Source: Cymodocea nodosa | Lineage: Eukaryota; Streptophyta; Magnoliopsida; Alismatales; Cymodoceaceae | Assembly (NCBI GenBank): GCA_036874045.1 | Contig: JAZBRI010000008.1 | Span: 4,665,001-4,729,000, forward strand | DNA: 64,000 nt | Direction: 5' to 3' | Part shown: piece after piece, positions 1 to 33,106 of the stretch | How the letters are laid out: each line of letters opens with the position of its first letter | Numbering within the stretch: position 1 is the first letter of the stretch | Notes under the pieces: generated by a model | The model's input: the letters and a program-made list of their open reading frames with translations, nothing else | Databases searched by the model: none | Told to the model about the DNA's origin: nothing | Position numbers and translations under genes: made by a program

Positions 1-3000
1 GATTGCAGATGGTTAGATCACATGAACAACAAATGAATTATATTCAATATAATAGAGCTGAGTATGAGAATCCTATAGTTTACCCAACTAATGGTCAGTT
101 TAAAACGTGTAATATGTTGAGAGACAAGGAAGTTTGGGATAGGTATGACAAACTGGAGCGTAGTTTAGACTAAAATATGGACAAACTAGAACAATACATG
201 TGTCAGCAACAAGAAGTCAACCAATTAAATTATAGGGAAGAATATACAAAACCTAAAATTGATATCACATACAAAACTGAAAAAACCATAATGAAAATTG
301 ATCAAAAATTGAATGCAATGAGATTAGATGACTTGGAAAGAAAACTAAAAGCATTGGACGAATTTACGATGAAATTATAAGTTATGCAATAGGAAAACAC
401 AAACGAAAACTTTAATGTTACAGATTTGCATAATTTGCAAGACATACAGACAAAAGAAAATACCAATGCAATAGAATTTAAAGAATGTAAGTTAAAACTA
501 AAAACAATTGAAGATCAAAATTATGAAAATGAAATATAAGAACATCATGAAAGTAATGAAAATCTGGAAGATGTATGTATAACATTAAGATCTAGAACTA
601 ATATACCACCAAGAATTCAAAAAGAAAGTAATATGAAGGTGGATAAAAACAAAATTCTAAATGATAATGAAAATGTAATATCTGAAAATATAGAAATCAA
701 TGAAGAAAAAACTCAATATGAAAATGAGACTAAAAATGATCAAACGAATGTAATGAAAGAAAAAGAATCTTGTAAATCACAATCATTAGCACCCTATCCT
801 AAAAGATTACAACAAACATTTCTTGAAAAATAAGAAAAAATTAGAGAAATTTTTGAAAAAGTACAAGTTAACATTCCTTTGTTAGACTTATTGTAGAAAA
901 TGCTATCTTGTGCTAAATTTCTTAAGGATTGGTATACTAAGAAAAGAGAGCAAAAAGTTTTAAGGAAAGTCTTTTAGTTGAGCAAAGTAGTTCCTTATTT
1001 CTACCACAAATTCCTAAAAAGTTATTTGGTCTTGGAATCCCTATTATATCATGCACCATAGGAAATACCATTATAGAAAGAACCTTAATAGACCTAGGTG
1101 CAGGTATAAATGTTATGCCGAGTGATATATTTGCATCCTTAGGATTAGAAGGCTTAATCCCTACTAGGATTGTTATTCAATTAGTTGATAGAAGTATAAG
1201 ATACACTAGAGGTAAAATAGAGGATGTCCTAATTAAAATCAAAAACTTCATATATCCTATTGATATTGTGATTTTGGATTCCCAACAAATTAAGCATCAA
1301 AATTGTGATATATCTTTAATTTTGGGAAGACCACTCTTAGCAACATCAGGGGTTGTTATAAATTGTAAAATTGGAGTGATGAAGTTAGCATATGATAATG
1401 AGGATACTCAATTAAACATTTTCAAACAAGAAAAGTTTGAGGAGTTAGAAATGTCCTTACATACTATAGACTTTTTAGAGGATGAAGGAGATATGCTAGA
1501 TGATGTGATTCAAGAAGAATTAAATAGGTAACTAAATTCTAAAACTTTAGAAGTGAAAGTATAAATGTAGAAGGAGATCAAGAAGAGATTTATAAAGAAG
1601 ATGAAAATGTTCAATTAGAAGCTCTAGCTTCTAATGGTCAACATTTAGATTTAAAACCTTTACCTCCTAAATTAACCTATATATTTTTGGAAGAAAATGA
1701 ACATGTCCAATCATTATTGCTTCAGATTTAAAAGGGGATCAAATTACTAAATTAAAGATGTAGTAAAAACTTATAAAGAAGCAATAGGATGGACTATGAC
1801 AGATATAAAAAGGTTAAGTGCAACTTTAAGCTATCACCACATATATTTAGAAGAGAATCCTAAACCAGTTAGAATTCCTGAGAGGAGATTAAATCTAAAC
1901 CTTAAAGAAGTAGTTAGGAAGGAAATAGTGAAATGGTTAGATAATGACATAATTTATTCGATTTCTGATAACTCATGGGTTAGTCCAATCCATGTAGTTC
2001 CCAAGAAATCGGGATTAACTATTATTAGGAATGAAAGTCAGGACTTGATACCTACTAGAATTCAATTAGGCTGGAGAGTGTATATAGACTATAAAAAGCT
2101 GAATGTTGTGACTAGGAAAGATCATTTTCCTTTACCTTTCATAGATCAAATGTTAGAGAAATTATTAGGGCAAGAATATTTTTGTTTCCTAAACAGGTAT
2201 TCAGGATATCACCAAGTTCTAGTAGTATTAGAGGATTAAGAGAAAATAACTTTCACCTGTCCTAATGGAACTTATGCTTTTAAGAGAATGTCATTCGGAT
2301 TATGCAATGCGCCAGCCACCTTTCAAAGGTGTATGTAGGGCATATTCACTGGAATGACTGAAGATTTTTTAGAAATATTTATGGATGATTTTACTGTATA
2401 TGGAACTTCATATGAAGTGTGTTTAAACAATTTAGACCAAGTATTAAAACGTTGTGTGGAAAAAAAATCTGATTCTAAATTGGGAAAAATGTCACTTCAT
2501 GGTTAAACAAGGAATAGTCTTGGGACATGTTGTTTCAAAGAAAGGGTTGGAAGTACATAAAGCTAAAATAGAAGTAATTTCTAATCTACTAGAACCTAAA
2601 TCAATAAAAGATATTAGATCATTTCTAGGACATGCTGGATTTTATAGAAGATTTATTAAAGATTTTAGCAAAATAGCTAGACCTTTAACTAATCTATTAA
2701 AAGATTTCCCATTCAACTTTGATAAAAATTGCAAAAAAGCATTTTTCAAGCTTAAGACTAGCTTAATTTCAATTCCTATAATACAAGCACCTAATTGGAG
2801 CAATCCATTTGAAATAATGTGTGATGCATTTGATTTTGCTGTAGGAGTAGTTCTGGGAGAAAAGATAGAAAAATCTCCTAAAGTGATTGATTATGCAAGC
2901 AAAACATTAAATGATGCTCAAGCTTATTACACAACTATTGAAAAAGAGCTATTAGATGTTGTGTTTGCCTTAGAAAAGTTTAGATCATATCTGATTGGAG

Positions 3001-4530
3001 CTAAAGTGATAGTATACATGGATCATTCAGCTTTAAAACACCTAATAGAAAAGAAAGAGACTAAACCTAGATTGATTCGATGGATATTATTATTACAAGA
3101 ATTTGTTTTAGAAATTAAAGATAAAAAAGGTTGTGAGAATGTAGTAGCAGATCATTTATCAAGATTACAAATAGGAAAATCAAATATTGAAATTAAGGAT
3201 AATTTTCCTAATGAACAATTAATGACCATCAACACAATGTCTTAGTATGCAGACATAGTTAATTACTTAGTTATTGGTTTAACACCTAAGGATTGGAATC
3301 GACAGGATAAGAAATTGTTCTTTTCAAGAGTAAAATATTACTGTTAGGAAGACCCATACTTATTTAAGAAATGTCCTGATCTGGTTTTAAGGAGGTGTGT
3401 TCCTGAAATTGAATATTAGAACATATTGTCTTTCAGCCATGACCAAGCATGTGAAGGGCATTTTGGTTTAGGGAAAATTGCTGCAAAAATTCTACAATGT
3501 GAATTTTATTGGCCAACACTATTTAAAGATGCTCATAAATACTACTTAAGTTGTTTAAGATGTCAACAAATAGGAAGAATATCAAAGAGGAATATGATGC
3601 CTCTGAATCCTATTGTTGAGGTTGAAATCTTTGATGTGTGGGGAATAGATTTTATGGGTCCATTTCCTATGTCTAATTAATTTAATTATATATTGTTGGG
3701 GGTGAATTATGTATCTAAATGGATAGAAGCTATTCCTACAAAAACTAATGACAACAAAGTGGTAATACAATTTATAAGAACTAATATAATTTCCAGATTT
3801 GGAATACCTAAAGCTATTATCAGTGATAGAGGAACTCATTTCTGTAATAGAAGTTTTGAAGCCTTAATGAAAAAATATGGAGTAAATCACAAAATTGCAA
3901 CATCATATCATCCGCAAACAAGTAGACAAGTAGAAAGTGAAAACAAACAAATTAAGTTAATCTTAGAAAAACTAGTAAATCCTACTAGAAAAGATTGGGC
4001 TAATAGATTAATAGATGCACTTTGGGCTTATAGAACTACTTATAAGACAAGCTTAGGTATGTCACCTTTTAGGCTAATATATGGAAAAAGTTGTCATTTA
4101 CTAGCTGAAATTGAACATAAAGCTTATTGGGTATTAAAAACTCTGAACACTAATTTAAATCAAGCTGCTAAAAACAAGAAAATGCAATTGATTGAATTAG
4201 AAGAATTTAGGAATGAAGCTTATTCGAAAACTATAAGAGAAAATGAAGTTCTAGCATGACAAGAAAATTATTCCAAAAACCTTTGAAATAAGACAAGAAG
4301 TATATCTTTACATGACTAAACTCCATAACCATCTAGGAAAATTAAGATCTAGATGGGCAAGACCTTATATAATTCAAAATATTTATTCCTATGGAGCTAT
4401 TGAAAATCCTAAAAATCAGAATATATTTAAAGTAAATGGACAAAGACTTAGACCTATTCTGAAGATTCCAAAAAGTTTCTTTGGAATTATAGAAGAAGTA
4501 AAAGTAGAGGACTCATCGAGCTTTACTTAG
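1..4530 (+). pseudogene. Athila element X: pro-pol region (protease, RT, RNase H, integrase)
   Basis: Left part of a Ty3/Gypsy Athila-lineage element; the window opens about 200 bp inside its 5' end, because base 1 aligns with base 20063 of copy Y. Parts in order: an acidic, Lys/Glu-rich spacer after the zinc knuckle (1-1000), an aspartic protease with an LIDLGAGIN active-site segment (about 1085-1530), reverse transcriptase with IDYKKLN and FMDDF (about 1796-2500), RNase H (about 2600-3190), integrase with its zinc-binding region near 3430-3580 and the IDFMGPF and SDRGTHF catalytic segments (about 3630-3840), and the integrase C-terminus (to about 4530). Family assignment rests on the DLGA protease, the RT and integrase sequence, an ORF3 downstream and an Asp-tRNA-type PBS in the sister copy. 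The region is broken, with roughly ten or more breaks. Confidence 0.93.
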
Positions 4531-5254
4531 TAAGAAATTATCTAAGTATTGTGAAAGAAAAAAACCTTATTTAAAAATAGTCATGGTTCAACCGAAAGAA
4601 ATTATTGGTTTGACCAAAACATATATTAAAAAGAAAAAAATTGTTGTGATTCAACTGATAGGATCCATCGGTTTGATCGAAACATAAAAACATAAAAAAA
4701 TCTATATATTATTAAGTAAAAATGTCAATTTTACCAAAGCATAGTATAGGTTCAACTAGTAGAAAAAGAAAGTATTTAATTTCGATTCGACCGAGGAATA
4801 TAACGGTTTGGCCAAAATTCTAAAATATTGAAAAATTAAGAATCGATTAGACCAGAAATTCTTCGGTCTTGATCGAAGTAAAAATTATTATTATAAGTAT
4901 TTTTATTAGTTATAACTTTATGGGAGGTTCGTTGAGTTACGCTTAACTCAACGAACTTACTTCGTTGAGTCTAGGATAAGTTAACGAACTTACCCCATTG
5001 AGTTAACTATAAATCAACAGAGTATTGTAGTTAAGTCCACAGACTTAGTCTGTGGAGTTACGATTAACTCTACGGAGAAGTGAGTGAAAGAGCGAGAGTT
5101 TGCGTAGGAAAATGACCCGATTACCTACCTAAAACTTAGGGTTTATTTATACTAAAACTTAGGATTTGGGGGCATTATCCGTAGAATCATTTAGAACGTA
5201 GAATAGTAGAGATCAGAGCGATTTCGTTCCATTCCGTCAAACCACGAAGTCAAG
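4531..5254 (+). repeat. Non-coding spacer of element X with two hairpin-repeat blocks and an ORF3 leader
   Basis: No coding sequence. 4565-4890 holds about four A-rich units spaced roughly 80 bp apart, each with an imperfect inverted pair of the type ggttcaaccga...ttggtttgacc. 4925-5075 holds a second hairpin family built on taactcaacgaa / ttcgttgagtta. 5095-5254 looks like a leader: a telo-box-like tagggttt (5137-5144), then TATA-like tttatttatac, then a GC-richer stretch ending at the ORF3 ATG (5255). A separate promoter for ORF3 is inference. Confidence 0.6.
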
Positions 5255-7475
5255 ATGACGCCTGAGTTCTAGGCAGCAATTGACACCACGAGATTCCTCA
5301 AAGAGTTCGAAGAATGGCATACAAGACAAAAGATCAAGAACACGACAAGGGAAAAAGAACTAGAAAAGGTAGAATCTGACATCTTCTATTGGAGGAAAGT
5401 TTTAGTAGATTTAGATATTAGAATACCTCAGATTGTAGAAATAAGGATTAAAGTAGCAATAGAAGTTACTGTGAATAGAGAAAGGAAAATAAGATCAAAC
5501 AATGAAGTTGCCCTAAAATTGATCCAACGCAAGGCCAGATTATGATTCTTATGAGAAATTGCTGGTTGTGCAAGGGGTGAAATTAGGTGGCAACAATAGA
5601 GGAAAGTAGCTGAAGAACCTGCAATTGCAGAGCTAGCTGTTGAAAAACCAGTTACTAAGGAACAGTAGCTAGGACCATCCATTCCATTGCTGAGACCGAT
5701 CGAAAGAGCAGCATTTTTGGGGCCATCAACGCTAAAGGAATGGAGAGAATTTGTAGAGCTTGTTAAAGTTGCCAAGAGCCAAGGAAATTCTAAGGATATG
5801 GTTGTGGCAAAAATGCATTTGCTATACGATGCACTCTACAAGAAAAGGGCCGTAGATAAGTTGAAGGCCCAATATAAAATTAAAGTAGAGCAACATTAGG
5901 AAGCAGCTAGATCAATGGCTGCAAGAGAAACTAAAGTTGGTCCTTCGAGACTAGTAATTATAGAAAAAGTAAAACTGGAAGAACTAGTACCTATGGCTCG
6001 AGGGCCTAAAAAGCCTATTTTTGTAGATTTAATCTTAGAGGAGGAAGAGAAAGACCAGACACAGCTATTTAGAAAAAGGAAAGGAAAAGAGATAGTCCTA
6101 AAGCTCCTGTAGAGATTAAACCTGAGTTGAAAATATCAGAAGGGCCTAAAGAGCCCATTTTTGTAGACCTGCTATTCGAAATTGGGGAGGAGTAGGAGCA
6201 GTAGTAGCAAGAGCAAAGAGAAGAAGAAAAACATGTAGTCTACTGAAATTAGTCTGCAACCTATACAAACAAAAGAAATTGAAGTTAGGGTAGAAGCTGA
6301 TTTGCCTATGACTCCATCCCATTCTGCCACAGAATCAAAAAAAATAGTGACAATGCAGATTGGTAGTCAAGAGGAAGAAGAAATAGAAGAAATTGAATAA
6401 GAAGCTAAACAAAAGCATATGGAACAAGAAGGAAATATCTCGACAGATTCCATTGAAGAGAGAGAGACTCTTCTGCAAATTTTTGAGAGGATTCAAGAAA
6501 GAAGGGTGGAGAGTTCTACCGGCTCTCCACCATAGATAGAAAGAGGAGCTGAAATGTAGGAATCTCCATATCATTTCCAACAAGCTCAAGTTCAGCAAAT
6601 TGAGGAAGAATTTCAAGAACAAACCCCTTTAGAGCAACAAATTCAAATTCCTGACCTAGCTGAAGCAACAGTTCTAAATGAAGTATACTTTTGGAGTTAG
6701 GAAGCATACAATAAATATCAAGAGATTAGGGGTTATGATATTATATATAGTAGACCAATAAACTAGGACGGTATGAATGATATTAAAAAATTATTTAAGT
6801 TCTAGGGTCTACTACAATTTATTTCTCAACAGAGAGGGCATGCTGTATATGAAAATTTAGTGCCCTATTTTTATGCAAACTTGAGAGAGGAAGAAGGAAA
6901 TTTAATTTCCAACATGGAAGAAGTTAATGTACAGATAACACCAGAGCTTCTCCACAACATTTTTGGATTGAAAAATGAAGGGATAGAAATTCTAGAGAGC
7001 ACAACTGTAGTCGAGTAGATAGAACATGAAATAAAGGACTATTTAGCTATCAATTCTGGTGTGCCATTATTAAACAGATTGAAGCACTTAAATGGTAAAG
7101 CACACATGGTAGCTAACATTTTGATTAAAAATGTCTACCAACAATAAGGCCATGATATTGAACTAAGTCAATTTGTTAAAAGGGCCACATATGCAGTTGT
7201 GAACAGAATTCAAATTAATTGGTACAATGTTTTTATCTCCAAGTTGAGAGTAGCAAAGAAAAAACTATTTTATGGAGATCTGATTCCACTACTAATGGTG
7301 GATAATATTGACTTTATGAAATGGACATCCAAAAGGATAAAATCTAGAGCCATTTTAGTGAAGGAGTACAGAAATTATAATGCTGCAGCTGCTGAGATAT
7401 CTAGACGTTCTAGAGACATTATAAGAGTTGTTGAATGGATAAATCAGTTAGAACAACAACTAGAAAAGCACTAGA
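5255..7475 (+). pseudogene. Element X ORF3 (plant transposon-protein domain)
   Basis: Third reading region of Athila elements, downstream of integrase where env-like genes lie in this lineage. The N-terminal half is charged, with a Lys/Arg/Glu helix-like stretch (5290-5480) and a long Glu/Gln-rich linker (5900-6650). The C-terminal half (about 6750-7400) matches the family annotated in plant genomes as 'putative plant transposon protein'; key segments are GLKNEG, NRIQINWYNVF and KLFYGD. The same segments recur in Copia elements A and C of this window. I see no signal peptide or transmembrane segment supporting a true envelope. Its function is unknown. It is broken, with about ten breaks. Confidence 0.8.
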
Positions 7476-8497
7476 AGGAAGTAGATGAACTTAGGAAAAA
7501 TGACTAAATGTATTGTTCGTCTACTTATATTTGTATTGAAAAAATATCTGACTGTATGTAAATGTAAACTATTTATATAAATGAATGCTTGAATTTTAGA
7601 TGTTTTTGAATTCGTGTTTGTGAATGCATGATATCATTGAGAACTGTATTGAATTGAATATTATATAACTGTTTAAAGATGTGCAAGACTGTTTAAAAGT
7701 TTTACAATTTTGTGAATGACATGTTAAATGCATGATAATTAGTTAATGCTTGAATATATTTGCATGCTGAAAAGTAAAATATAAATTCTGCATAACAGGA
7801 AATGAACTGTAAGTTAAATATGCATATATTGTTCAGATTTAAATGAGTTTAAATTAGAACACTACATTAATGACATGTATTTAACTTTAATTAAGTTGAC
7901 AAAATGCAGTAGAGAAAAAAATTTATAGAAGTTAATACAAGGAGTAAGTTTTAGAAAAATTTGCTAAGTGTTAACTCAACGAAGTTAGTCCATTGAGTTA
8001 CCCTTAACTCCACAAGGTCAAGAATAAAATATAAGGTCACTCCGTTGAGTTATCTGTAACTCAACAAAGTTAGTCCGTGGAGTTAGCAAATAGGCAACGA
8101 AGCTAGTCCATTGAGTTAACTTTTACTTAACGAGGTTAGTTCGTGGATTAAGTTGAACGGTTATTCTTTTAGCCACGAACGAAACTTTGTGGGTTTAGCG
8201 ATTATTAAAATTTGAAATAAGAAGTGTAACACATATCCATAAAAATAGGAACCATATTGCACGTTACAGACATGTTCTTGCAACGAGATTCATTTGCCTT
8301 ATGGACGTGCATTATAAATATATAATAGAATGTTATTTTCAAGTTACCAGCACTTGAGGAAAGAAAAGAAAATTCATTGGGGAACTAGAAGGAGAAGTAG
8401 TTGATTCAACTTCATTCGTCAACAACTATTTACTGAAAACAAAGCATCAGATTGGTATGTAATTAATCTTTTGCTACTTTACTTTATGTTAAGAGTT
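7476..8497 (+). promoter_or_regulatory. Spacer between ORF3 and gag of element X, with hairpin words and a TATA-like promoter
   Basis: No coding region. 7500-7960 is AT-rich without clear repeats. 7970-8170 carries several copies of the gttgagtta / taactcaac hairpin word. 8190-8340 looks like a core promoter: G-box-like cacgtta and gacgtg elements, then a TATA box attataaatatata (about 8308-8321), then a likely start region near 8345. I looked for an Asp-tRNA or Met-tRNA PBS and for similarity to the X LTR here and saw neither, so there is no evidence of an LTR between ORF3 and gag. Promoter activity is inferred. Confidence 0.5.
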
Positions 8498-9848
8498 TAT
8501 GAGCACAAGGATTCATTCTCCTAGCACTAAATGATTAGTAAGAACACCTACACAGGATTATTCAACACAAAGGCATATTGAAATATTTTCTGAATTAGAC
8601 TTTAACGAAATCCTTAAGCATGTAGCGAACCTTTCTTTAAAAGAGAACGAAGCTATGACTACTCTAGTAGAAAAACCATTAGGGGAAATTCTATATCTTG
8701 AACTAGTTAATGAACCTTCATGAATTCAATTGCCAAACTTTGAGAGAGATAGGTTTGAACTGAAATCTAATTATATTAGTCAATTGCTACACTTTCATGG
8801 ATTAGAAAGAGAAGATACCTATTATTTCCTTAGAGAATTTAACGAAGTTTATCAAATGATGAAAATACCAAACATGAGTATTGATGCTATTAAACTTAGA
8901 TATATCCCTTTTACTTTAAAAGACACAGCTAAGAGATGGTTATATACTCTATCGCCTGATTCAATTTCTGCATGGACTGAATTTTGTTATGTTTTTCTGG
9001 AAAAATATTATCCAACACATCAAACGATTAAAAAGAAAAAGGAAATATTAATGTGTAGCCAAAAACAGGAAGAATCATTCTGGAAATATTTTGAAAGATT
9101 TAAAGATTTACTAACTCAATGTCCACATCATGCAATGAGTAAAGCATAATTAATAGGTATAATTTATGAAGGCATAGATGTTTCAACTAAATCTTTATTA
9201 GAATCTACTTGTTAGAATGGATTTTTAAAATTGTGTAGTGAAGAAGCATGGGCATATTTAGAAAACTTTGCAAAAAGAACTACACAATGGGAAAACTCGA
9301 TTGAAGCTATTACAGATAAAAGAATATTGCCAAGGGAAATGCATGAAATAGATTCAAGCACTATGCTTGAAGTTAAATTAACTGAATTAACAAAGAAAAT
9401 AGAAGAGTTATTATTAAATCAAAAGCTAGCAGAAAAGAATGCAAACATTAATGACTTAGATATTATTTATGCTAGAAACTAGAAAGATAACTTTGGAAAT
9501 TCTTATAATCCTAATTGGAGAAATCACCCGAACCTATCTTAGAGAAATAACAATTTCTAGGGAGGAAAAAATATAAATGATAAAAATATAAGTTATGAAG
9601 CATTAATTGAACAAAGATCTAGAATAGAGAAGTTAGAAAAGATAATTCAATAATTAAACAATCATCTAGATCATGTATTTGAAAATGCTGCCATTCAAAA
9701 TCAAAATATGAATAGAAATATACCCCCTAGATAGAAGGAATCAATAGAAGTTAGACCTACTGGAGGACTGCCAATGCAAGTAGTACCTAACCCTATCAAC
9801 AAAACTGTTAATGAAATTGATACCTCCTATGAGAGGGAAGCTGAATGA
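8498..9848 (+). pseudogene. Element X gag (Athila capsid-type domain) located after pol and ORF3
   Basis: Begins at MSTRIHSPSTK (8498). It contains the Athila retrotransposon gag domain at about 8730-9210: ELKSNYISQLLHFHG, a KLRYIPFTLKDTAKRWLYTL core and YYPTHQTIKKKKEI. A helix-rich tail follows (9230-9480), then an Asn/Pro stretch with YNPNWRNHPN (about 9500-9530) as seen at the gag C-terminus of Athila relatives. No CCHC zinc knuckle is visible; the knuckle sits instead at the start of pro-pol (see 19960). In other Athila elements gag is the first coding region after the PBS; here it follows pol and ORF3. Broken, with a handful of breaks. Confidence 0.85.
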
Positions 9849-10063
9849 AGCAGTATAACTAAAGTAACTATGTATAATATAGTAAGTAGAAAAATATAAA
9901 AAGAAAAAAATGTAAGTTTAATTATAGTTAGTAATATCGTAGAGTTATTACTTAACTCAACGAACTTAGTTCGTTGAGTTATGACCTAAGTCTACGAGGG
10001 TAAGTAGTTGTGTTAATTTTATCTCAGTTAAATTTTTGTTTATGTTATATAGAATCACAACAA
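9849..10063 (+). repeat. Spacer with a perfect 13-bp-arm hairpin
   Basis: Non-coding link between gag and the F-box peptide. 9953-9965 (taactcaacgaac) and 9969-9981 (gttcgttgagtta) form a perfect inverted repeat with a 3-base loop. A pyrimidine-rich run leads to the F-box ATG. Confidence 0.75.
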
Positions 10064-10174
10064 ATGGAATTGATGAAATTACCACTAGATGCATTGAGGG
10101 AAGTACTGAGTAACTTATCAGCTAAAGATCTATACAGATTGTGTTGTGTGTCAAAAGAAATTAAAGACTGTGTT
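10064..10174 (+). pseudogene. F-box-like peptide at the 3' end of element X
   Basis: An open stretch of about 37 codons from ATG 10064 reads like a complete F-box core: LPLDALREVLSNLSAKDLYR, then LCCVSKEIKDC. The pattern LPxDxLxxxLSxLSxKDLxRLxxVSKxxKD is the classic F-box signature (Skp1 binding in SCF ubiquitin ligases). There is no visible substrate-binding domain after it, and the coding stretch runs into the start of the 3' LTR. It lies inside a retroelement, between gag and the polypurine tract, so it is treated as an element part. Origin by host-gene capture is inference; chance resemblance is possible because the domain is only about 35 residues. Confidence 0.6.
10152..10168 (+). promoter_or_regulatory. 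Polypurine tract of element X
   Basis: Purine-rich caaaagaaattaaagac directly before the LTR start. The LTR boundary is supported by the solo copy at 48945-50777, where homology begins at the same tgtttagaatg and is flanked by a TSD. The tract overlaps the F-box reading region. Confidence 0.55.
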
Positions 10175-10700
10175 TAGAATGAAAAAGTGCATAATATTAA
10201 TGATTAAATGATGGTTAATTACGTAATATTTAGTTTATCATAGGAGAATTAAGTCATTATGTTATAATTACACTATTATATGCTTTAATGAAAAAATCTG
10301 CATAATTTCATGGAATTAGTGTTAATTAAGTACATTTCTAAATTGTCGATAAATTGCAAGTTTTTAATTCTTAAGTATCTAAATTTTCTGTTATTTCGAA
10401 GAGTTACATTTTATGTACCGGACAGTTATGTTTTAAATGCTAAAAGAATATTCAGGTACACAGTAACAACTCGTTGAGTTAAAGGCTTAAAGGTGTAAAA
10501 AGTACAAGTAACAACTCATTGAGTTACTGAGTAAAAACCGTAAGTTGTATATTTGAACTCGTTAAGTTAGAATTTGCACGTGTTGAATTTAAATACTTTA
10601 GTATATCACGTGAATTACACATGTATAACTCGTTAAGTTAGCATAACTATACACGTCGAGTTACTTGTAATACACTAAGGTAACGCAATGTGTTAGTGTT

Positions 10701-11907
10701 TGTAGGATCATCTGTATCACAAGAGGAGGGGTGAATTGTGTCTTTAGTAATTAAATACTAGCGGATAAAACAAGAGCACAAAACACTCATAAATGAAATT
10801 CTATTCTTTATTTTTAAAAAAAATTTACAATATCTTTTCAGCTCAATTCCCTTCTTGAAGGTTTTGATACAGTAATGTTCGATATACAATTCAAATAGAG
10901 AAACAAAGCTCTTATTCAAAACTAATTTTGAATTGTATAAAACTTGATCTTTATGCACACAGCTTCTTTCTTTCTCTTTGCTCAGCTTCTGTATCTCTTC
11001 TTCTCTAGTTGTCGAATTTTCAAATTTCTTGCGTTTGCAACTCCTTTTCTAAAATTGCTTGGAATTTCGAACTTCTTCTAATGTTGGAGAATTTTTCAGA
11101 ATATGAATATTCAAACTTAACTTTTCAGTTAGGGATCCAAATTGAATATTCAGACTTGGTTTTTGAGATTGGGATCCTATGTTGTAATGTAGCTCGTACT
11201 CTCTATTAGTAGTCGAACTCTGTTGTCTTTCACGTTCAGCGTGTTCATCCACTTAATCCATAATCCATGTACTAATTTTTTCTTTAATCCAAATTACTAT
11301 CTTTTTGAGTTTCCACTTTCTCCACAATCATTTTGAATTTCCACAATCTCCACTCGTAGATACATCGAGACTTTTTTTCTTTCTGGAGTCTTGTAGAATA
11401 TCTTCTAAGTCTTTGATTTAGTCGAACACTTATCATTTAAGTCTTGTAAAAACTCGAACACTTATCTGTAACTCTTCGAGTTTTTGCACCTGCAAAACAC
11501 GTGACTAAACATAGCAAACTTATCTGTTCGTTAGTCATTTTATAAAACTTGAACAGTTATCTATCCATGCGTATAAAAACTCGAACAGTTATCTAACTAT
11601 TTGATTTTCATTACCGAACGCACATGGAAAACATGTGACAACTTAAAATATTAAAAACACATGTGCAGATAACTTAACTATACGAGTTTTTAACATAAAC
11701 TATTCGACAAAAGGAAACGTTAACTATCCGAAAGTTTAACTATCGAAAATCTAACTCTTTGGAAATCTTTAACTTATCCGACATAAAAATGAAACTTTTC
11801 GATAATCTGTTAACTATTATACTTAGAGAAATATACTTAGAGAATATTATTTAGACTTATTTAAAAACATTAATAAAGCATATATCATCAAAACAAAATT
11901 CCTAACA
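10701..11907 (-). repeat. 3' LTR of Copia A
   Basis: 1207 bp. In element orientation it begins tgttaggaattttg and ends gatgatcctaca. It contains many words of the type cgaatagtta and ttcgagttt. It is preceded by the PPT at 11908-11922 and flanked outside by the TSD. Confidence 0.88.
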
Positions 11908-11922
11908 ATCTCCCCCTTTTTA
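11908..11922 (-). promoter_or_regulatory. Polypurine tract of Copia A
   Basis: In element orientation aaaaagggggagatt abutting the LTR start, the usual PPT of SIRE-type plant Copia elements. Confidence 0.85.
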
Positions 11923-12239
11923 ATGATGTCAAAACTTAATAAGTCAAAAATAATCTATCTCTTCTCCCCCTTTTGGCATTATAAAAAAGTAAATAAAATG
12001 TAAGGAAGAAAAAGATTCTAAGTACATATCGTTCAAAAAGATTTTAAACATGCATAACTGTCGTGGATTAAGCATAAACTGTTTAAATATAAACTGTGAA
12101 AAATAATCACATGAGTATTAAATTGTAGTAAACAGTTTACATAATATTTTTGGTAACAAATTACAATACATAAATCATGTAATACATAATTTGTATAATT
12201 ACAAGCATCTTTGTCTTCGAAAAATACTAATCAAAGTGT

Positions 12240-14787
12240 TTGAAATTTGCTTTGCAATTTCTATACTTACTCTGTTTATCTGATCAATTACTACTTGATC
12301 TAAATTATTTTGTGAAACTTGTGATGGTTGCTGTAAAAATTCAATATGGATGTCTGTATGTATACTTGTATTTGTATCTGTTTGTGTACTTGTATTTATA
12401 TCTGTATGTATATTGGTATTGATATCTGTATGTTGCTGTTGTTCTGAAAATTGTGTTGATTGTTGCTATTGCTGTTGGGATTAAGTTTGTCTATCCTGTT
12501 GTTGTCGGACTACAGGTGTATCTATTGCCTAGTATTTTTGGAGTTCCTTTGCAAAGAAAGATCTTGATTTTAATCTTTTCTGTGGCCAAGGTGTAATATT
12601 GGTTTGACTTGCCACAATTCTCAAAATCGTATCACCATAAAATAATTTACTCTGCAAATGTAAGATATGAGAAATAAAAATATCATACCAGTTCACCTGT
12701 ATATGGTTAATTAATGCATATGTAGCATAAAGACAACATCTACCAACTTCTGCACCATGACCAAACCTCTGAAACAATGAAGCATGCAGTATTTTTGCAA
12801 TAAAACGTGCTTGGCCATTTAAGTCATTTAGTAACCTCAATGGTTTGTTGGCAATTGGATCTTTGGCTAAAGTTTGAATGTCTCATCCCAAATGATAAAC
12901 CTGTTTTCAGACCAAGTACTTGATAAAGTAAATCGGGAGTTAAATATATGTCATTTTCTTGTATATTGGAAACAGGAATACCGTCTTCCACTATTAAGTT
13001 TGAGTAAAAATAACTGATAAGTTCGGGTATAACAAGATGTCCTAGCAGTTGTGGAAGTAGAGTCAATAAGCCTTGAAATTCAAACATTTCTTGTATATGT
13101 GCCATCCCTTCAAACTTAACTGGTCTTGAATATAAAACTGTAAAAGTTTTATATGTTTGAAATTTGTCATAACATGAACTATTTTCGAATCATAATAATG
13201 TATTTTCATCTAAACTCTATTTAGGATTAGGTATTTTCCTATCATGATGTTCTGATCTGGGACTTGTTTCAATATTATCAACAGCATCTATATTTTCAGA
13301 TCTTTCAGAACTGGTGGAATTTCCATCAAAACTAGTATAAATGTCTGAAATATCTGTTATTGTCGTATCAATAATCTGCTAAAATTCTTTTGTTTGTTCT
13401 TTTGGAAACATTTCAGTAGCAACTGTATCTGTATCAATCTGTCTATCAGCAACATGTATGTCTATAATTGATCTATACAACAACTGTCTCTATATGAAAG
13501 AATGTTCTATATCTGTCTATATAATAGAATCATCTTGTATTTCTGAAATTTCTATTCTTGAGACATAGGCAGTGTGATATTCAATCTGTAACTATGTATG
13601 TTGTTGATTATATACATTTATCAACAAGTATATTATATACTGTAACAGATATAACCATATGTATAAACTGTAGTATAAGCAACTATACCAAAAATCAAAA
13701 TTTTCTATCCGTGATACACTTAGAGGAAGAATATCTGTACATTCCTCTTTAGATGAAATATCTTCTATATTCATAGACTTAGTGTCCATATCATCAAAAA
13801 TATCATCAAAATTGATATCATCTATATATGTATCATCAAAATTTCCTACATGTTCTCTTTCCATAGGAAAAGAATGTGTGCTTGCAATATGATGTGAAAA
13901 ACTGTCCATTGTATTAAAAGATACATTATGCACTAATGTGACACAATACCTTAGAGTGTATGCTTGTAATCCAATATTGTTCACATCTGCTAGGATTCCT
14001 GACACAAATGTCTGTTCAGCTTCTGCAATGGAACATAGTTTTCCATTTTTCAATGATTCTTCTTTTTGCTGCATTATTCCTTCTACACCTGCAGTTAGTC
14101 CAAAATATTCTAATGTATTTTTCTTTTTCCGACTATATGTCTGCAGTGTTTCTTGTTGTTTAGGAGGTTCTAAAATTTTCTTAATTTCTCCTGTTAAAGG
14201 CTCCTGGGGTCTTGATGGTCCTTCACCATGATGCCTAGGTAGTAATAATGGAATATAGAGTTTTAAGCTCTCCACCTCTGCCATTTTAAGTTGATAAACT
14301 CTTTGTCCTTCACTTCGAAGGCCCATTTTGCTAATGGCAGTTTTCTGTTCATTTATGTACTGTTAAATGTCATCTAAAACAGCCAAGGGAAAATAATGTT
14401 GGGAATACAATGTTTCTAATTCCCTATTTGCATTTTCTATCATTGGTCCCCATTTTTTCCATAATAAGTGATAGACTATACCAATTTTTCAGGTATCTGT
14501 CCAGAACTTGTAACAACCGCAGGGTTAGGTTGTAAAGTTTGTTTCCATAGTTGTAATGCGAAAAGTTCAGTCTGTTTTAGTCTAAACTGTGTTTCAGCAT
14601 AATTGCGAATAAACTTCCAACAGAAATTTTTCTCATCTTGAACAACTTTTCTAATTTCATGCAGTATTTCATTTGTAAAAGTGTACCTTGAATAGATGTC
14701 GTTGATTTCGTTTTGCATTTTCTAAAGTTCGAGCTCTCTTTTCTGTACTTTTGTCATTCTACCACGTCCTCTTCCATGTCCTGACAT
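12240..14787 (-). pseudogene. Copia A ORF3 (plant transposon-protein domain)
   Basis: Minus strand, starting MSGHGRGRGRMTKVQKRELE (14787). The N-terminal part is charged and helix-like (14720-14480, with FRLKQTELFALQLWK), followed by a long polar acidic linker (14330-13200). The conserved domain lies at about 13105-12520: EFQGLLTLLP, GLKTG, ARFIAKILHASLFQ, HIQVNWYDIF, KLFYGD. The end is Gln-rich with low-complexity repeats (12350-12470). It matches ORF3 of Gypsy element X and of Copia C over the same segments. It sits after the place where pol would be, as extra ORFs do in SIRE-lineage Copia. Broken, with several breaks. Confidence 0.78.
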
Positions 14788-14839
14788 TGTCGATTAAGCT
14801 TCGTTGTGCACTATAGAACTTAGTGGAAGTGAAGATTAC

Positions 14840-15650
14840 GAAACTAGGGTTTTACCAAGGTAGAAACATGAAAGGTTGTTAGTAAAACATTTATAACTCT
14901 TCGAGTTTATAAACGGATTCAATCATTGAAATCATAAATATAAGATCTGTTACTAATAAATAACTCGAGTGCTTACAATAACTGTACGAGTTTTACAACC
15001 TACAAAAGCAGAATACTTAGCGTAATTGTTCGTGCAAAGAAAATAACTTCTAGCTAAGTGAAAAGTGAGAAAACTCGAAGACTTATGATAACTATTAGAG
15101 TTTTGTGAGCAGTAAAGCATATAACTATACGACAAACATGAAAAGTTATTGTCAAAGATTAAGTCTTTCAAAAAATATAATAATATTAAGTTAACTGTTC
15201 TAGTTTCTCGAATGGATAGGTGTGAAAGTTGAAGAGTTAAACATAACTATTCGAGTTTCAACTGAGACATTATAAAGCAATGAAATTCAACACGTGCATA
15301 ATTCTAACTTAAGGTGTTCAGATATTTTCAGATACTTATAGACCTAACTATCCGATGCTTAGATGCATTTCGGAGAGTTACCAGATAACTTACCGAACAT
15401 TCACTTAAGATATGCATTCAAGAAATAATAAAATATTCTATTGATCATTTAAAACATAACTGTCCAATATATATATACAATAGTCTTCCGAAATCACAGA
15501 AAATTCAGACACTTAAGAATTAAAAAGCATGTATTTTACCGACAATTCAGAAATGTACTAAATTAATGTTAATTTCCTGAAATTATGCAGATTCTTTCAT
15601 GAAAACATATAATAGTTCATAAGAGTTGAATTATTATATGAGAAATTACT
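14840..15650 (-). repeat. Athila-X-LTR-like segment inside Copia A
   Basis: In Copia A orientation, the start of this stretch matches the beginning of the X LTR (about 10230-10620): shared words include aatctgcataatttca, ttttaattcttaag, ggacagttatgttttaaatg and gcacgtgttgaattt. The later part is rich in ttcgagtt hairpin words and carries a telo-box tagggttt (14845-14852 on the plus strand) just upstream of ORF3. Confidence 0.6.
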
Positions 15651-16729
15651 CTCCCTACATAAATGTAGTCTAAAGAATCTATGGCATACTTAAACTAGGT
15701 TGTCAAGCCCTAAATAGATTTGGCTTTAAAAAGTCAAATAGCTTACTTAAAAAGGATGCTAAGCCTTAAATAGATTTGAGTCTCTCTAAATTTTTTTTTT
15801 TATTTTAAATATGAATTAAATACAGAAAGAAGTAGTAGATTTAACAATTTAGACTTTCTGGCTTTTATCTTATTCAAATTACAAAAGATAATTCATAAAG
15901 ATATACCTTCAAGAACTTAAAAGAATTCAATAATGAGTACACAAACTTAAGACAATAAATATCGTACATTATGTATAAAGAGTAGATAATAACAAGAAAA
16001 AAATAAAGATTATATGCACAAATTATGGTAGGATTGTTATAACACCTTGAAAGATAAATTAAGCTTGAGTACATTGTACCTTTTTCCTTTTTTTTTTTGT
16101 TTATATTCATATATATTTTATGTAATACCTCCCACAATATCATCTCTTTACGTGATCACAATCCCTTGCTTAGGGGAAAGATAACCAGTTACTTAATGAC
16201 AAGTGAGAACAAGTAAATTATTTTTTTTTTTAATTGTAATCTGAATTACTTGCAAAATGAGTTTTCAATCAGCACATCCCAAACCAGTTGGTTTAAGTGA
16301 CTAGGGTTTAAGATCCCCCAACGGACTTAATTACTCAAGTAATTGTAGACAAAAACAAACAAAAAATAAAACAAGACAGTAAATTAAATTAAAGGCAACC
16401 GCAAGACTTAATTTTTCTAACAGAATGTTAATAACTTTCCTTTAATAAAAAGTATATACTTTCTATGTATTTTTTTGTTAAAATCTCTATAATAGTATAT
16501 ACATAAGTAACAAAAATATAGTTAGCACTCACATTGAATCAATTTAACATTCCCTAAGTAATCTTTTCTGAATTTTTCTTAAATAAATTGACTTCAATAA
16601 AAATCAGAATTTCATAAATTCTTAACTACTAGAAAACTATAATTCGAAAATAGATATTTTATTTTGTTTTTTTTTAATAATAAAGACATTAAATTCTAAA
16701 ACTACCTTTATAACAAAACAGTCAAAAGG
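15651..16729 (-). other. Unidentified AT-rich DNA inside Copia A
   Basis: Long T and A runs (15788, 16085, 16218, 16665). No domain, LTR end or inverted repeat was recognised. It may be a further decayed insertion or non-coding element sequence. Confidence 0.4.
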
Positions 16730-17640
16730 AGATTTTATCTCTTGGAACCTATTTTTGAGTGGATCCAAGAATTTTAGAGAGAGTCATATCAAAATAATCT
16801 GTATTTTTAGACTTCAAATTATCTATTTTCTGATAATTATTTTTTCGTTTCTTTCTCTTAGTGTTATAATTATCAGAACATTTATCTCTATGTAAACTAG
16901 AGTTGAAATTTTCATTTCTAACTTTATTTGATTTCTAATATCCAATATTCTTTAAATATGAAGAAAATTGATCAAAAATATTAAGATTCTCAAATGACTT
17001 AGCTTGATTTTTCTGAAAATTTCTTTTGACATTTTTGCATCGTGTGCTATCATTTATATGTTGCATTTTATCAACTTGCACATATTTTTCTCCCTTTTTA
17101 ATTACACACGGAATAGTTTTTCTCTTACTATTCTTAGTACTGGAAATAAAGACATTATTTTTAACAGTACCACATGCAATATATAATTTTCAGAAGATGC
17201 ATCGTGTAAACCAATACCATGCTTTTCTATATTTGATATTTTACTACTAAGTTCATTTGTTATAGTTTGACTATTATTCCATTTACTTAATATAGCCTTT
17301 TGATCGCAGATCTTAATCTTTAGCATATAAATTTCTGAATTTAAATCAGTAATAGTCAATTCCAGTTTTTCAATTTCACAAATCATTTTCTTCTTATCAG
17401 CAATTAAATTTTCACAATTAGCATGCAATTTTCTTTCTATTGCAGTAAACTTTAAAATTTCCTGTGCATGCCTTTGATTTTCTTCTTTAAATTTACTCAA
17501 TGTAGAGTTCAGAAAATCAACCTTATTTTCAGATTCATCTAGCATTTTCCTAGTGTTCTTTCCTTCTATTTTTACTTTCTTATATTGTCTGGCCAGTCTA
17601 TTGTATTCAACAAGTAATCCATCAAAACTATCAAAGTTAG
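16730..17640 (-). pseudogene. Copia A gag C-terminal coiled-coil region
   Basis: Minus strand. 17545-17200 reads as a long Lys/Glu/Leu/Ile coiled coil (ENKVDFLNSTLSKFKEENQR, then IEKLELTITDLNSEIYMLKI), typical of the gag C-terminal half in SIRE-type elements and comparable to 55830-56140 of Copia C. No further domain is seen toward 16730. Confidence 0.6.
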
Positions 17641-17651
17641 CATTTTCAAAC

Positions 17652-18382
17652 TTGGCTTTTGAAATTGGGATCCTATGTTGTAATGTAGCTCGTACTCTCT
17701 ATTAGTAGTCGAACTCTGTTGTCTTTCACGTTCAACGTGTTCATCTACTTAATCCACGTACTAATTTTTTCTTTAATCCAAATTACTATCTTTTTGAGTT
17801 TCCACTTTCTCCACAATCATTTTGAATTTCCACGATCTCCACTCGTAGATACATCGAGACTTTTTTTCTTCCTGGAGTCTTGTAGAATATCTTCTAAGTC
17901 TTCGATTTAGTCGAACACTTATCATTTAAGTTCTGTAAAAACTAAAACATTTATCTGTAACTCTTCGAGTTTTTGCACCTGCAAAACATGTGACTAAACA
18001 TAGCAAACTTATCTGTTCGTTAGTCATTTTATAAAACTTGAACAGTTATCTATTCATGCATATAAAAACTCGAACAGTTATTTAACTATTCGATTTTCAT
18101 TACCGAACGCACATGGAAAACACGTGACAACTTAAAACATTAAAAACACACGTGTAGATAACTTAACTATATGAGTTTTTAACATAAACTATTCGACAAA
18201 AACGAAACGTTAACTATCTGAAAGTTTAACTATCGAAAATCTAACTCTTCGGAAATCTTTAACTTATCCGACATAAAAATGAAACTTTCCGATAATCTGT
18301 TAACTATTATACTTAGAGAATATTATTTAGACTGATTTAAAAACGTTAATAAAGCATATTCATCAAAACAAAATTCCTAACA
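17652..18382 (-). repeat. 5' LTR of Copia A (partial)
   Basis: About 730 bp matching the first part of the 3' LTR (10701-11907) in the same orientation, ending next to the TSD gtgtt. Only part of the LTR is present; no PBS was seen. Confidence 0.85.
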
Positions 18383-19860
18383 GTGTTATAAGCTTATAAG
18401 CTATTTCTTTATTGCATGTGTTTTATAGTTGAATTAACAAAGTAAGTCTGTTGAGTTAGCTATAACTCCACAGACCATTTATTTTCTAACATGCCACTAT
18501 AGCAATTGCAGAAACAGGAAATTCGAAGGAAAACCACGATTGCACGTATCACATAGGAATTCACTTGTGGAATGAAGAAGAAATCACCATCGTTGATATG
18601 AATGAAGGAAATCCAACTGATCATCTAAGCAGAAGTAGTTACTACTGAAAGAAATATAAAAGAAGAGGAGAAAGACGAAGAAAGTGTGTGTGTAGAGGTG
18701 GAAAACCACGCTAACTGTAGGAAGCATTGGAAGTTCCCCAAAGCTCCACACCACCACCAAAATCATCAACCGTCGAAGGTCTGTGATGATACTTTCTAGA
18801 TGTCAGGTCGATTCCCAACCAAACACAGTGACTAACAACCACTGTGAGGAGTGATCACATCATGGGAAGGGAAGCCATTTTCACCAAGCACCAACTCATA
18901 TCTCAGGAGATCATAAAGCTTCTGGCCTTGGTTTCAAGTTGATGCAAGTATGCTAAAGAGAAGATCATCTTACAATTCTTGATTTGCGATTCTATAGGGA
19001 GAGGAGGCAAGATTGTAAGTAATTAAGTTTTTAGTGGTGTAATCGCGTCGCATGTAGTGACGAAAGTTTTTACTATCGATAGAGATTTTTACATTTCACC
19101 TTTTGTTCCTCTTCAAGAACATATCAAAACAAAAAATACCAAAAACAACAAATTATCTATTTTTACATTTAGTATTAAAGTGTTGTATTGTTTGTTTTGT
19201 ATCGTGATTAATGTTATCATTATCAGTATTGCGAATGTTTTACGTTTGTTTAATTCAGAAAATAGAAAATAGTTTTATTGTTTACTGAAATTGATTCGTT
19301 CCAAATGCTTAAAGATTTTAATGGTTACTGTTTGAAATATCTGAATGTTAGTGTTGCTTAATGATAAATCTAATATTAACTAACATTAAAGAGCTTAATT
19401 GATGTTATTTACATTCTGTGGAACTACCCAATGGTTAGCCAAATTCCTCTGTAAATAGCAGTATTTAACTAGAAAGGTAAGCTCGTGGAGTTAACTTAAT
19501 TCCATGAGGTTAGTTCGTTGAGTTAACCATAAGTCCAAGAACTAGGTCCATTGTGTTAACTGTAACTCAACAGAGTGCTTAACTGAACACATATAAACTC
19601 CAACATAAAAATAAAAACAGTACACAATTCTTACTCAATCTCTATGGGATCGACCTGTACTTACACACAAATACAATATATATTGTACACTTGTAGTTAA
19701 AAATACAAATTGGATTTAATATCTAATTTGTGTGAAAGGTTGTTTGTTTACTTTTAAAAGTAATTATTTATATAAGCATAAGAACAAATTAAATAAGTTT
19801 TTCTAGCACCGTTGTATAAACAAGTTTATGATTTAAATTTTCACAACCAAACAAGTTTTC

Positions 19861-19878
19861 TAGCGCCGTTGTCGGGGA
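19861..19878 (+). promoter_or_regulatory. Asp-tRNA-type primer binding site of copy Y
   Basis: tagcgccgttgtcgggga differs by only two bases from tggcgccgttgccgggga, the PBS known for Athila elements (complement of the tRNA-Asp 3' end). A near copy, ctagcaccgttgt, lies about 58 bp upstream (19803-19815). Confidence 0.8.
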
Positions 19879-19959
19879 TTGAGAAGTTAAGCAACTGTGA
19901 GCATTGTTTTGTTTTTACAACAGAAGGAGTGTTGTGTGTTTTATTTTCTAATTGAGAAT

Positions 19960-22048
19960 ATGGCATATGCTTATGCTCAAAGATTTCTGAAACCTATAGT
20001 TAGCATATGTAAATTCTGTAATTTGGAAGGTCACGACATCTCTAATTGTTTGAAACTGAGACGATTGCAGATGGTTAGATCACAAGAACAACAAATGAAT
20101 TATATTCAATATAATAGAGCTGAGTATGAGAATCCTATAGTTTACACAACTAATGGTCAATTTAGAATGTGTAATATGTTGAGAGATAAGGAAGTTTGGT
20201 ATAGGTATGGCAAACTAGAATATAGCTTAGAGTAAAACATGAACAAACTGGAACAATACATGTGTCAGTAACAAGAAGTCAACCAATTAAACTATAAGGA
20301 AGAATATACAGAACCTAAAATTGATATCATATACGAAACTAAAAAAACCATAATGAAAATTGATCAAAAATTGAATGCAATGAGATTAGATGATTTGGAA
20401 AGAAAGCTAAAAGCATTGGATGAATTTACAATGAAATTACAAGTTATGCAATAGGAAAACACAAATGAAAACCTTAATGTTACTGATTTGCATAATTTGT
20501 AAGATATACAAACAAAAGAAAGTACCAATGCAATAGAATTTAAAGAATGTAAGTTAAAACTAAAAACAATTGAAGATTAAAATTATGAAAATGAAATACA
20601 AGAACATCATGAAAGTAATGAAAATCTGGAAGATGTATGTATAACATTAAGATTTAGAATTGATATACCTCCAAGAATTCAAAAAGAAAGTAATATGAAG
20701 GTGGATAAGAACAAAATTCAAAATGATAATGAAAATGTAATATCTAAAAATATAGAAATCAATGAAGAAAAAACTGAATATGAAAATGAGACTAAAAATG
20801 ATCAAACGAATGTAATGAAAGAAAAAGAATCTTGTAAATCACAATCATTAACACCCTATCCTAAAAGATTACAACAAACATTTCTTGAAAAACAAGAAAA
20901 AATTAGAGAAATTTTTGAAAAAGTACAAGTTAACATTCCTTTGTTAGACTTATTGCAGAAAATGCTACCTTGTGCTAAATTTCTTAAGGATTGGTGTACT
21001 AAGAAAAGAGAGCAAAAAGTTTTAAGGAAAGTCTTTTTAGTTAAGCAAAGTAGTTCCCTATTTCTGCCACAAATTCCTAAAAAGTTATCTAATCTTGGAA
21101 TCCCTGTTATATCATGCACCATAGGAAAAAACATTCTAGAAAGAAGCTTAATAGACCTAGGCGTAGGTATAAATGTTATGCTAAGTGATATATTTGCACC
21201 CTTAGGATTAGAAGGCTTAATTCTTACTAGGACTGTTATTCAATTAGCTGATAGAAGTATAAGATATCCTAAAGGTAAAATAGAGGATGTCTTAATTAAA
21301 ATCAAAAACTTCATATATCCTATTGATATTGTGATTTGGGATTCCAAACAAATTAAGCATCAAAATCATGATACATCTTTAATTTTGGGAAGACCATTCT
21401 TAGCAACATTAGGGGCGGTTATAAATTGTAAAACTGGAGTGATGAAGTTAACATATGGTAATGAGGATACTCAATTAAACATTTTCAAACCAGAAAAGTT
21501 TGAGGAGTTAGAAATGTCCTTACATACTATAAACTTTTTACAAGATGAAGGAGATATGCTAGATGATGTGATTCAAGAAGAATTAGATAGACAACTAAAT
21601 TCTGAAACTTTAGAAGTAAGTGAAAGCATAAATGTAGAAGGAGATCAAGAAGAGATTTATGTAAAAGATGAAAATGTTCAATTAGGAGCTCTAGCTTCTG
21701 ATGGTCAACATTTAGATTTAATACATTTACCTCCTGAATTAACTTATATATTTCTGGAAGAAAAACGAACTTGTGCAATCATTATTGCTTCAGATTTAAA
21801 AGAGGATCAAATTTCTAAATTAAAAGATGTAGTAAAAACTTATAAAGAAGTAATAAGATGGACAATGACTGATATAAAAGGGTTAAGTGCAACTTTATGC
21901 TGTCACCACATATATATTTAGAAGAGAATGCTAAATCAATTAGAATTCCTAAGAGGAGATTAAATCCAAACCTTAAAGAAGTAGTTAGGAAGGAAATAGT
22001 GAAATGGTTAGATAATAACATAATTTATCTAATTTTTGATAGCTCATG
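19960..22048 (+). pseudogene. Athila copy Y: zinc knuckle, protease and start of RT
   Basis: Begins about 80 bp after the PBS with MAYAYAQRFLKP. A CCHC zinc knuckle CKFCNLEGHDISNC lies at 20008-20049, followed by the same acidic spacer as X, the aspartic protease (about 21140-21480, SLIDLGVGINVM and LILGRPFLA), and the start of RT, where Copia A2 interrupts it. No gag capsid domain lies between the PBS and the knuckle. Y is less decayed than X: one open stretch covers the protease region for about 400 codons. Clear nucleotide identity with X (base 20063 = base 1 of the window) runs to about 22048. Broken, with few breaks. Confidence 0.88.
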
Positions 22049-32904: not shown

Positions 32905-33106
32905 ATGGCTTCCGGCCCCCTAGTTGGTGCGGGCGGCGGCGGTAGCGGTGGAGGGAACGGGTCGAGGGAGAAGCACCGCTGGGCGGATAACAAGGTCTAC
33001 ACCAGGAAGTCCCACAAGACGAGCTCAAAGAGTAACCCTAGCTCTCAGCCGCCACCGCAGAACCCGCCGCAAGAGGAGACCCCCAAAGCGAGAATTGATG
33101 GGGTAG
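32897..33106 (+). other. Overlapping upstream ORF of the GTE gene
   Basis: An ATG at 32897 lies 8 bp before the main ATG, in another frame, and stays open for about 69 codons to 33106, overlapping the main coding sequence. If it lies in the mRNA, scanning ribosomes meet it first. Its context (T at -3, T at +4) is weak, so leaky scanning is likely. Confidence 0.5.

What the first reader, a model, noticed from the sequence alone, without database searches (positions are those of the whole stretch)
1..19878. Athila element with gag after pol and ORF3
Seen: in X the order is pro-RT-RNaseH-integrase (to 4530), ORF3 (5255-7475), gag (8498-9848), F-box peptide (10064), PPT, LTR. Copy Y shows what follows the LTR and PBS: zinc knuckle and protease with no gag capsid domain. 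No PBS or X-type LTR was found between ORF3 and gag. Known: Athila elements place gag first after the PBS. Together X and Y define an LTR-PBS-knuckle-pro-pol-ORF3-gag-F-box-PPT-LTR unit, an order I do not know from any described Gypsy lineage.
Basis: partly seen in the sequence, partly recalled or inferred. Interest (0 to 1): 0.88.

Follow-up and report, generated by a model that had tools for sequence, protein, structure and literature searches.

The report
Plant retrotransposon with relocated capsid gene
A large family of jumping elements in a plant genome carries its capsid (shell-protein) gene near the far end, after the enzyme genes, instead of first, apparently because one gag gene was duplicated and then split into two complementary halves.

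Summary
The gene order is real and recurs across the genome. X's own 5' LTR and decayed PBS lie just outside the window and lead straight into the knuckle ORF; then protease, RT, RNaseH, integrase, ORF3, gag, the start of an F-box gene, and the LTR at 10171. In the source genome (374.6 Mb) 40 of 40 scored hits to the ORF3-gag junction are colinear (39 besides X), and 40 of 40 scored LTR-PBS hits run into the knuckle without capsid. One further locus shows LTR-PBS-knuckle-pro-RT-RH-INT-ORF3-gag-F-box in order. The 3' gag lacks just the knuckle segment and stops where the canonical polyprotein enters LRSGK-protease; the 5' ORF has knuckle and protease but no capsid: complementary halves. Corrections: the LTR at 10700+ is a Copia-type element (10701-18382, TSD GTGTT) inside the Athila LTR; X and Y share one LTR; X lost about 2.9 kb (most of the F-box gene, tail, PPT). 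Part of the ORF3-gag spacer weakly resembles the LTR's first part, so a collapsed tandem array is a possible origin. Separate expression of capsid is inferred only.

The parts
1..1750 (+). X: linker and protease region of the knuckle ORF (its start, PBS and 5' LTR C8:4662786-4664797 lie outside the window, in L064)
   Evidence: 93% to Y; homologs; 5' LTR, PBS and ATG in L064
1751..3245 (+). RT and RNaseH
   Evidence: PF17917 5.8e-31 and PF17919 1.1e-25 in 2448-3242; RT read from the sequence only
3246..4530 (+). integrase
   Evidence: rve PF00665 5.5e-12 in 3681-4256
4531..5254 (+). IG1, intergenic, with palindrome 4927-4956
   Evidence: found in copies
5255..7475 (+). ORF3 (broken by stops); similar to ORFs in two Copia-type elements of the window
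   Evidence: PF20167 E=6.5e-4, below its cut-off
7476..8498 (+). IG2: first half weakly like the first part of the LTR, motif repeats 7972-8140, TATAAA at 8313, T-rich stretch ending in AG before the gag ATG
8499..9848 (+). gag: capsid domain and C-terminal part without zinc knuckle, 449 codons with stops
   Evidence: PF03732 5.6e-17; alignment; 39 other copies at 93-94% over nearly the whole length
9849..10063 (+). IG3 with palindrome 9953-9981
10064..10170 (+). start of the F-box gene; the rest with tail and PPT (about 2.9 kb) is missing in X
   Evidence: PF00646 7.5e-10; longer ORF in other copies
10171..10700 (+). first part of the Athila LTR (3' LTR of X and 5' LTR of Y)
10701..18382 (-). 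inserted Copia-type element (TSD GTGTT), not part of the unit
   Evidence: Copia type from the iMet-like PBS behind a related LTR at 23460 and recalled motifs, no Copia pol scanned
18388..19853 (+). rest of the Athila LTR, ends ..CACAACCAAACA
19861..19878 (+). primer binding site (TAGCGCCGTTGTCGGGGA)
   Evidence: tRNA-Asp type is recalled
19960..22048 (+). Y: knuckle ORF without capsid, linker, protease, start of RT; then cut by another LTR

Best explanation
This is a high-copy Athila-like Ty3/Gypsy family with a split gag. Shown: the order LTR-PBS-[knuckle-protease-RT-RH-INT]-ORF3-[capsid gag without knuckle]-F-box-PPT-LTR, pieced from many loci and read nearly whole at one. Inferred origin: gag came to be present twice, perhaps when two neighbouring units of a head-to-tail array collapsed into one (the first losing its capsid, the second its pol, with a remnant of the LTR's first part left in IG2), or by template switching; each gag half then kept what the other lost. 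Inferred working: capsid is made from its own shorter mRNA, from a promoter in IG2 (motif block followed about 190 bases later by TATAAA at 8313, as in the LTR) or by splicing to the AG before the gag ATG, which sets capsid over enzyme yield without frameshift or stop read-through; the knuckle on the pol polyprotein would tie enzyme to genomic RNA. The F-box protein would act as an SCF adaptor, possibly against a host defence factor.
For: Order. TSD TCCAT around the LTR outer ends of C9. Complementary domain content; no knuckle in the gag of 10 of 11 listed copies, the eleventh (C5) frameshifted there. A separate, uninterrupted protein, P0028, begins with Met and knuckle and has no capsid. F-box ORF over at least 377 of 379 residues in 108 of 108 scored hits, 8 without a stop. 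TATA and AG in nine of nine leaders aligned. Head-to-tail arrays sharing an LTR: X-Y, and C16. LTR-like signal in 7476-7970: 0 of 300 shuffles reach the score against the X/Y LTR first part. Recombination among Athila elements: PMC2410132 (passages).
Confidence: 0.68

Rival explanations
1. The family is non-autonomous: the working gag (capsid plus knuckle) was lost, the particle comes in trans from gag-first Athila elements, and the gag after ORF3 is a passenger piece picked up by recombination.
For: All 11 gag copies listed carry stops and show no codon-position constraint. Arabidopsis Athila includes many non-autonomous forms and recombinants (PMC2410132, passages). Whether gag-first elements exist in this genome is unknown (the search with P0004 did not complete).
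Against: Gag stays in one 449-codon frame without length change in most listed copies (C5 and C10 are one base short), so the burst probably came from an open frame; loss of just the knuckle from one half and of the capsid from the other looks like division of labour.
Confidence: 0.22
2. Gag belongs to a second element in tandem with, or nested in, a pol-ORF3 element; the LTR between them has decayed.
For: IG2 shares the motif with the LTR, and 7476-7970 resembles the first part of the LTR above shuffles. One gag copy (C13) has a minus-strand LTR joined to its cut IG2, and one (L063) has a 1.6-kb insertion in IG2 with a 233-base minus-strand match to the LTR (73%).
Against: 40 of 40 scored junctions colinear; 40 of 40 scored LTR-PBS hits lead to the knuckle; no PBS-like site in IG2 of X; ORF3 ends about 1 kb before gag in most copies examined, too near for a 2-kb LTR; C9 has gag inside TSD-flanked LTR ends. 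At most this describes the origin of the unit, not its present state.
Confidence: 0.06
3. Assembly artefact or chance juxtaposition in this window.
For: Tandem and nested copies make assembly hard.
Against: Same junctions at 40 scored places each, on many contigs, at 83-92% identity, so not copies of one error.
Confidence: 0.02

Closest known systems
Athila lineage of Ty3/Gypsy (Athila4, Diaspora, Bagy-2, Cyclops-2 as listed in PMC6317226)
   Same: Gag type, PRO-RT-RH-INT order, an ORF between pol and 3' LTR, LTR of about 2 kb, PBS resembling the recalled Athila PBS.
   Different: Capsid gag after ORF3 instead of first; knuckle fused to protease-pol; an F-box gene before the PPT.
Plant LTR-retrotransposons with extra ORFs between pol and 3' LTR (PMC7264820, part 1 of 3 read)
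   Same: Sense ORFs after pol.
   Different: There gag stays first; here the capsid gag itself lies in that region.
Foamy viruses (recalled, no call)
   Same: Gag and Pol made separately rather than as a fusion, if the inference holds.
   Different: Gag is still first there and no knuckle sits on Pol.
Ogre (gag-pro and pol parted by an intron; PMC6317226 section 13)
   Same: Two-ORF control of the polyprotein.
   Different: Order unchanged; capsid not moved behind pol.

Membership tests
Ty3/Gypsy LTR retrotransposon | PRO-RT-RH-INT order | tested here: met
   RNaseH 2448-3242 before integrase 3681-4256; protease region by homology; RT by reading
Ty3/Gypsy LTR retrotransposon | LTRs TG..CA, PBS, PPT, short TSD | tested here: met
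   LTR TGTTTAG..ATACA and TSD TCCAT in C9, LTR ends and PBS-like site in L065, PPT in seven copies
Athila lineage | RT/INT phylogeny | not tested
   no tree built
Athila lineage | Athila-type gag | tested here: met
   27 proteins at E<=1e-3, best 3.4e-59, 26 of 27 with PF03732; that they are Athila gags is recalled
Athila lineage | gag first after the PBS | tested here: not met
   40 of 40 scored LTR-PBS hits run into the knuckle without capsid; gag follows ORF3 in 40 of 40 scored junctions
Athila lineage | PBS for tRNA-Asp | tested here: inconclusive
   site seen; tRNA identity recalled, tRNA not compared
Athila lineage | ORF3 (env-like) after pol | tested here: inconclusive
   position met; PF20167 E=6.5e-4 below cut-off
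F-box proteins | F-box domain | tested here: met
   PF00646 1.8e-9, residues 4-44 of L010:3073-4209; C-terminal part unmatched

The most novel reading that the evidence does not exclude
A plant-wide sublineage of Athila in which capsid and knuckle-pol are separate, separately transcribed genes in reversed order, born from a collapsed tandem array whose inner LTR remnant became the capsid promoter, and armed with an F-box protein against host silencing; surveys missed it because elements with unexpected domain order were discarded as prediction errors.
Probability: 0.3. Interest if true: 0.9.

Novelty: new variant of a known kind. Interest (0 to 1): 0.77.

Why it matters
Gag-first order is treated as a fixed trait of LTR retrotransposons, and a large plant survey removed every element with an unexpected order as likely mispredicted (PMC6317226 section 6). 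Here a family with thousands of first-look candidates breaks that rule, with gag split into complementary halves. It makes testable how capsid and enzyme amounts are balanced without a Gag-Pol fusion. It also carries an F-box gene; the word F-box occurs 0 times in two papers on extra ORFs (PMC7264820, listing; PMC11963269).

Tried and rejected
A decayed LTR in IG2: sought by alignment with shuffles. The motif is shared; 8140-8498 shows nothing; 7476-7970 shows a weak recurring signal to the LTR's first part (0 of 300 shuffles for X/Y, 432 aligned pairs, 296 identical, 38 blocks), so a fossil is kept open and only a present-day boundary is rejected. IG1 and IG3 also scored above all 60 shuffles against LTRb and Z, through the motif as far as I can tell; those alignments were not printed. 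A 39-nt intron before gag: dropped as short. Purifying selection on gag and F-box: not seen (F-box five copies against C9: 0.086/0.084/0.091). Viral-contig scans: nothing. F-box protein: none of 2259 candidates at E<=0.001; one hit at E=0.6 in the PDB. Literature: (listings only) showed no gag-after-pol plant element to me; only CC-licensed PMC papers are searched. The control search for gag-first Athila in this genome (protein P0004) did not complete. The query 3900-5600 (integrase-ORF3 junction) did not complete either. The organism was not identified. Of 39 gag hits besides X, C8:12481406 was not examined for ORF3.
Full report
What was checked. The window is plant DNA; the assembly holding it has 374.6 Mb in 28 contigs and the window is C8:4665001-4729000. 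X begins inside the window within its knuckle ORF and is 93% identical to Y over 2 kb. Domain calls: RNaseH and integrase, Retrotrans_gag E=5.6e-17, F-box E=7.5e-10; frames of ORF3 and gag (gag has ten stop codons, the terminal one counted).

The repeat at 10701-11908 / 17642-18382 is the LTR of another element on the minus strand, inserted with TSD GTGTT. I call it Copia-type from the iMet-like PBS behind a related LTR (23460) and from recalled motifs. It sits inside the Athila LTR, which starts at 10171 and resumes at 18388, so X and Y are contiguous and share one LTR. Another LTR copy, Z, lies at 50777-48980, minus strand (76% over its larger part). The F-box peptide of X ends because X lost about 2.9 kb: in seven other copies the LTR follows about 3 kb after the F-box start (in C3 the F-box start itself is missing) and is preceded by ..TATGGGGGAAG or near variants.

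X is itself a test case. A search with 19700-20400 (LTR end, PBS, knuckle) returned C8:4664645-4665338, which runs into the window start. The fetched stretch shows X's own 5' LTR (L064:1387-3398), a decayed PBS, and ATG with the knuckle, no capsid between. Within one locus the order LTR-PBS-knuckle-pol-ORF3-gag-F-box(part)-LTR is thus read directly.

Order in the genome. Ten gag copies with about 17 kb of context: ORF3-IG2-gag in 7 of 10; in C3, C10 and C13 IG2 is cut by other DNA, in C13 by a minus-strand LTR. Nineteen more, in 600-base pieces ending 801 bases before gag: 17, and an eighteenth once a 1.6-kb insertion in IG2 was spanned (L063; that insertion holds a 233-base minus-strand match to the LTR's first part, 73%). 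Nine more: 8. Together 33 of 38 examined, of 39 hits besides X (4599 first-look candidates). The two outright misses have other repeats upstream (L062, L057). ORF3 ends about 1 kb before gag, which leaves no room for a 2-kb LTR; the last 800 bases were not fetched for most of the 28 later copies. The junction query gave 40 of 40 scored hits reaching from ORF3 into gag (39 besides X; 5276 candidates). The 5' query gave 40 of 40 spanning LTR end, PBS and knuckle (X and Y among them; 5004 candidates).

Whole units. C16:9083300-9103000 reads LTR 828-2671, PBS-like site 2679, knuckle-protease, RT (with a 1.2-kb insertion), RNaseH, integrase, IG1, ORF3, IG2, gag, IG3, F-box, tail; its 3' LTR is replaced by inverted repeats. 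C9 has LTR outer ends and TSD TCCAT inside the ORF3 of an inverted copy; its 5' LTR is cut short, and PBS, pol and most of ORF3 are missing (LTRs 89.4% over 1029). C16:6250618 has an LTR on both sides of (part of protease)-RT-RH-INT-ORF3-gag-F-box, with a foreign piece behind the 5' LTR, and lies in an array: a PPT end upstream, PBS-knuckle downstream.

A split gag. Canonical proteins run capsid, knuckle, YNPGWRNHP, LPSQ..PNPR, LRSGK, protease (P0004, P0014, P0015). The 3' gag aligns from the N-terminal part of gag through YNPNWRNHP to LP..VPNP..VNEIDTSYEREAE-stop, with a gap at the knuckle. The 5' ORF of Y starts with Met, knuckle cysteines at 17, 20 and 30 and histidine 25, its own linker, then LRF and the protease region. 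P0028, from a JGI contig of 2210 bases, is uninterrupted with the same layout: Met, knuckle from residue 20, no capsid. It is against a mere local deletion in Y, but its flanks were not seen and where its capsid gene lies is unknown.

Origin. Members stand head to tail sharing an LTR (X-Y; C16). The first half of IG2 (7476-7970) scores above 300 of 300 shuffles against the first part of the X/Y LTR, but less clearly against Z (6 of 300 reach it) and LTRb (25 of 300); AT-rich pol as control gives 15 of 300. In seven copies against five LTRs the signal recurs for X/Y, L064 and C9 LTRs (0-12 of 100) and not for Z (10-62 of 100); these copies are relatives, so the tests are not independent. In IG2 the last motif lies about 200 bases before TATAAA (8113, 8313), in the LTR likewise (18463, 18655). 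A collapsed array, leaving an LTR remnant before gag, is therefore a fair but unproven origin.

How it may work. TATAAATA and a T-rich run ending in AG before the gag ATG are present in nine of nine leaders aligned, among close relatives. Transversions between 11 gag copies are even over codon positions (0.0114/0.0116/0.0118), all changes 0.081/0.059/0.064; F-box likewise. This fits decay after a burst and does not prove function in this place.

The F-box gene. C9 has an open 379-codon frame. In the genome 108 of 108 scored hits cover at least 377 of 379 residues, 8 of them without a stop (7031 candidates); that each lies in a copy of this element was not checked. No relative at E<=0.001 in the protein search. 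A silencing-suppressor role, as for poleroviral P0 (recalled), is a guess.

Literature. PMC6317226 (sections 6 and 13 read, passages elsewhere): 8453 Ty3/Gypsy elements ordered GAG-PROT-RT-RH-INT; elements of unexpected order were in every case removed; GAG not reliably found in 159. PMC7264820 (part 1 of 3 read). PMC2410132 (passages). PMC11963269 (passages): of 63 Retand clusters seven lack GAG, two lack GAG and AP.

Verdict. Open are how capsid is expressed, whether any copy is autonomous, whether gag-first relatives share the genome, and how far the arrangement extends beyond this species.

Noticed in passing
window 60247-61254 (+) and 12493-13171 (-): Two Copia-type elements carry an ORF similar to ORF3 of this Athila-like family (tblastx 32% over 236 aa; 39-42% over 89-116 aa), so an env-position ORF seems shared across the Copia/Gypsy divide.
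   Followed up: partly
window 4927-4956, 7972-8140, 9953-9981, 18435-19576, 48627-48932: A 33-bp palindromic motif (GTTCGTTGAGTTA..TAACTCAACGAAC) recurs before ORF3, gag and F-box and in the LTR, and repeats in tandem next to LTR copy Z.
   Followed up: partly
window 10171-19853; C16:6245000-6263468: Elements of this family occur head to tail sharing a single LTR.
   Followed up: partly
L010:3073-4212 and 107 other scored genome places: A 379-codon F-box gene without found relatives recurs in the genome in the element's 3' part.
   Followed up: partly
window 8499-9848: In-frame stops are TGA, TAG and TAA as C-to-T changes in CGA, CAG and CAA would give, fitting methylated, silenced copies (inference).
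   Followed up: no
window 43249-48559 (-): A Copia-type element (by reading) with 372-bp terminal repeats 96.5% identical, beside LTR copy Z.
   Followed up: no
window 32887-34599 (+): Open reading frame with bromodomain and BET domain, a likely host gene.
   Followed up: no
G000:C2, 6.6-11.5 kb upstream of the gag at 11914428: A diverged inverted copy (ORF3 75%) has the order INT-ORF3-gag-F-box with only about 0.2 kb between ORF3 and a gag lacking its first 200 bases.
   Followed up: no
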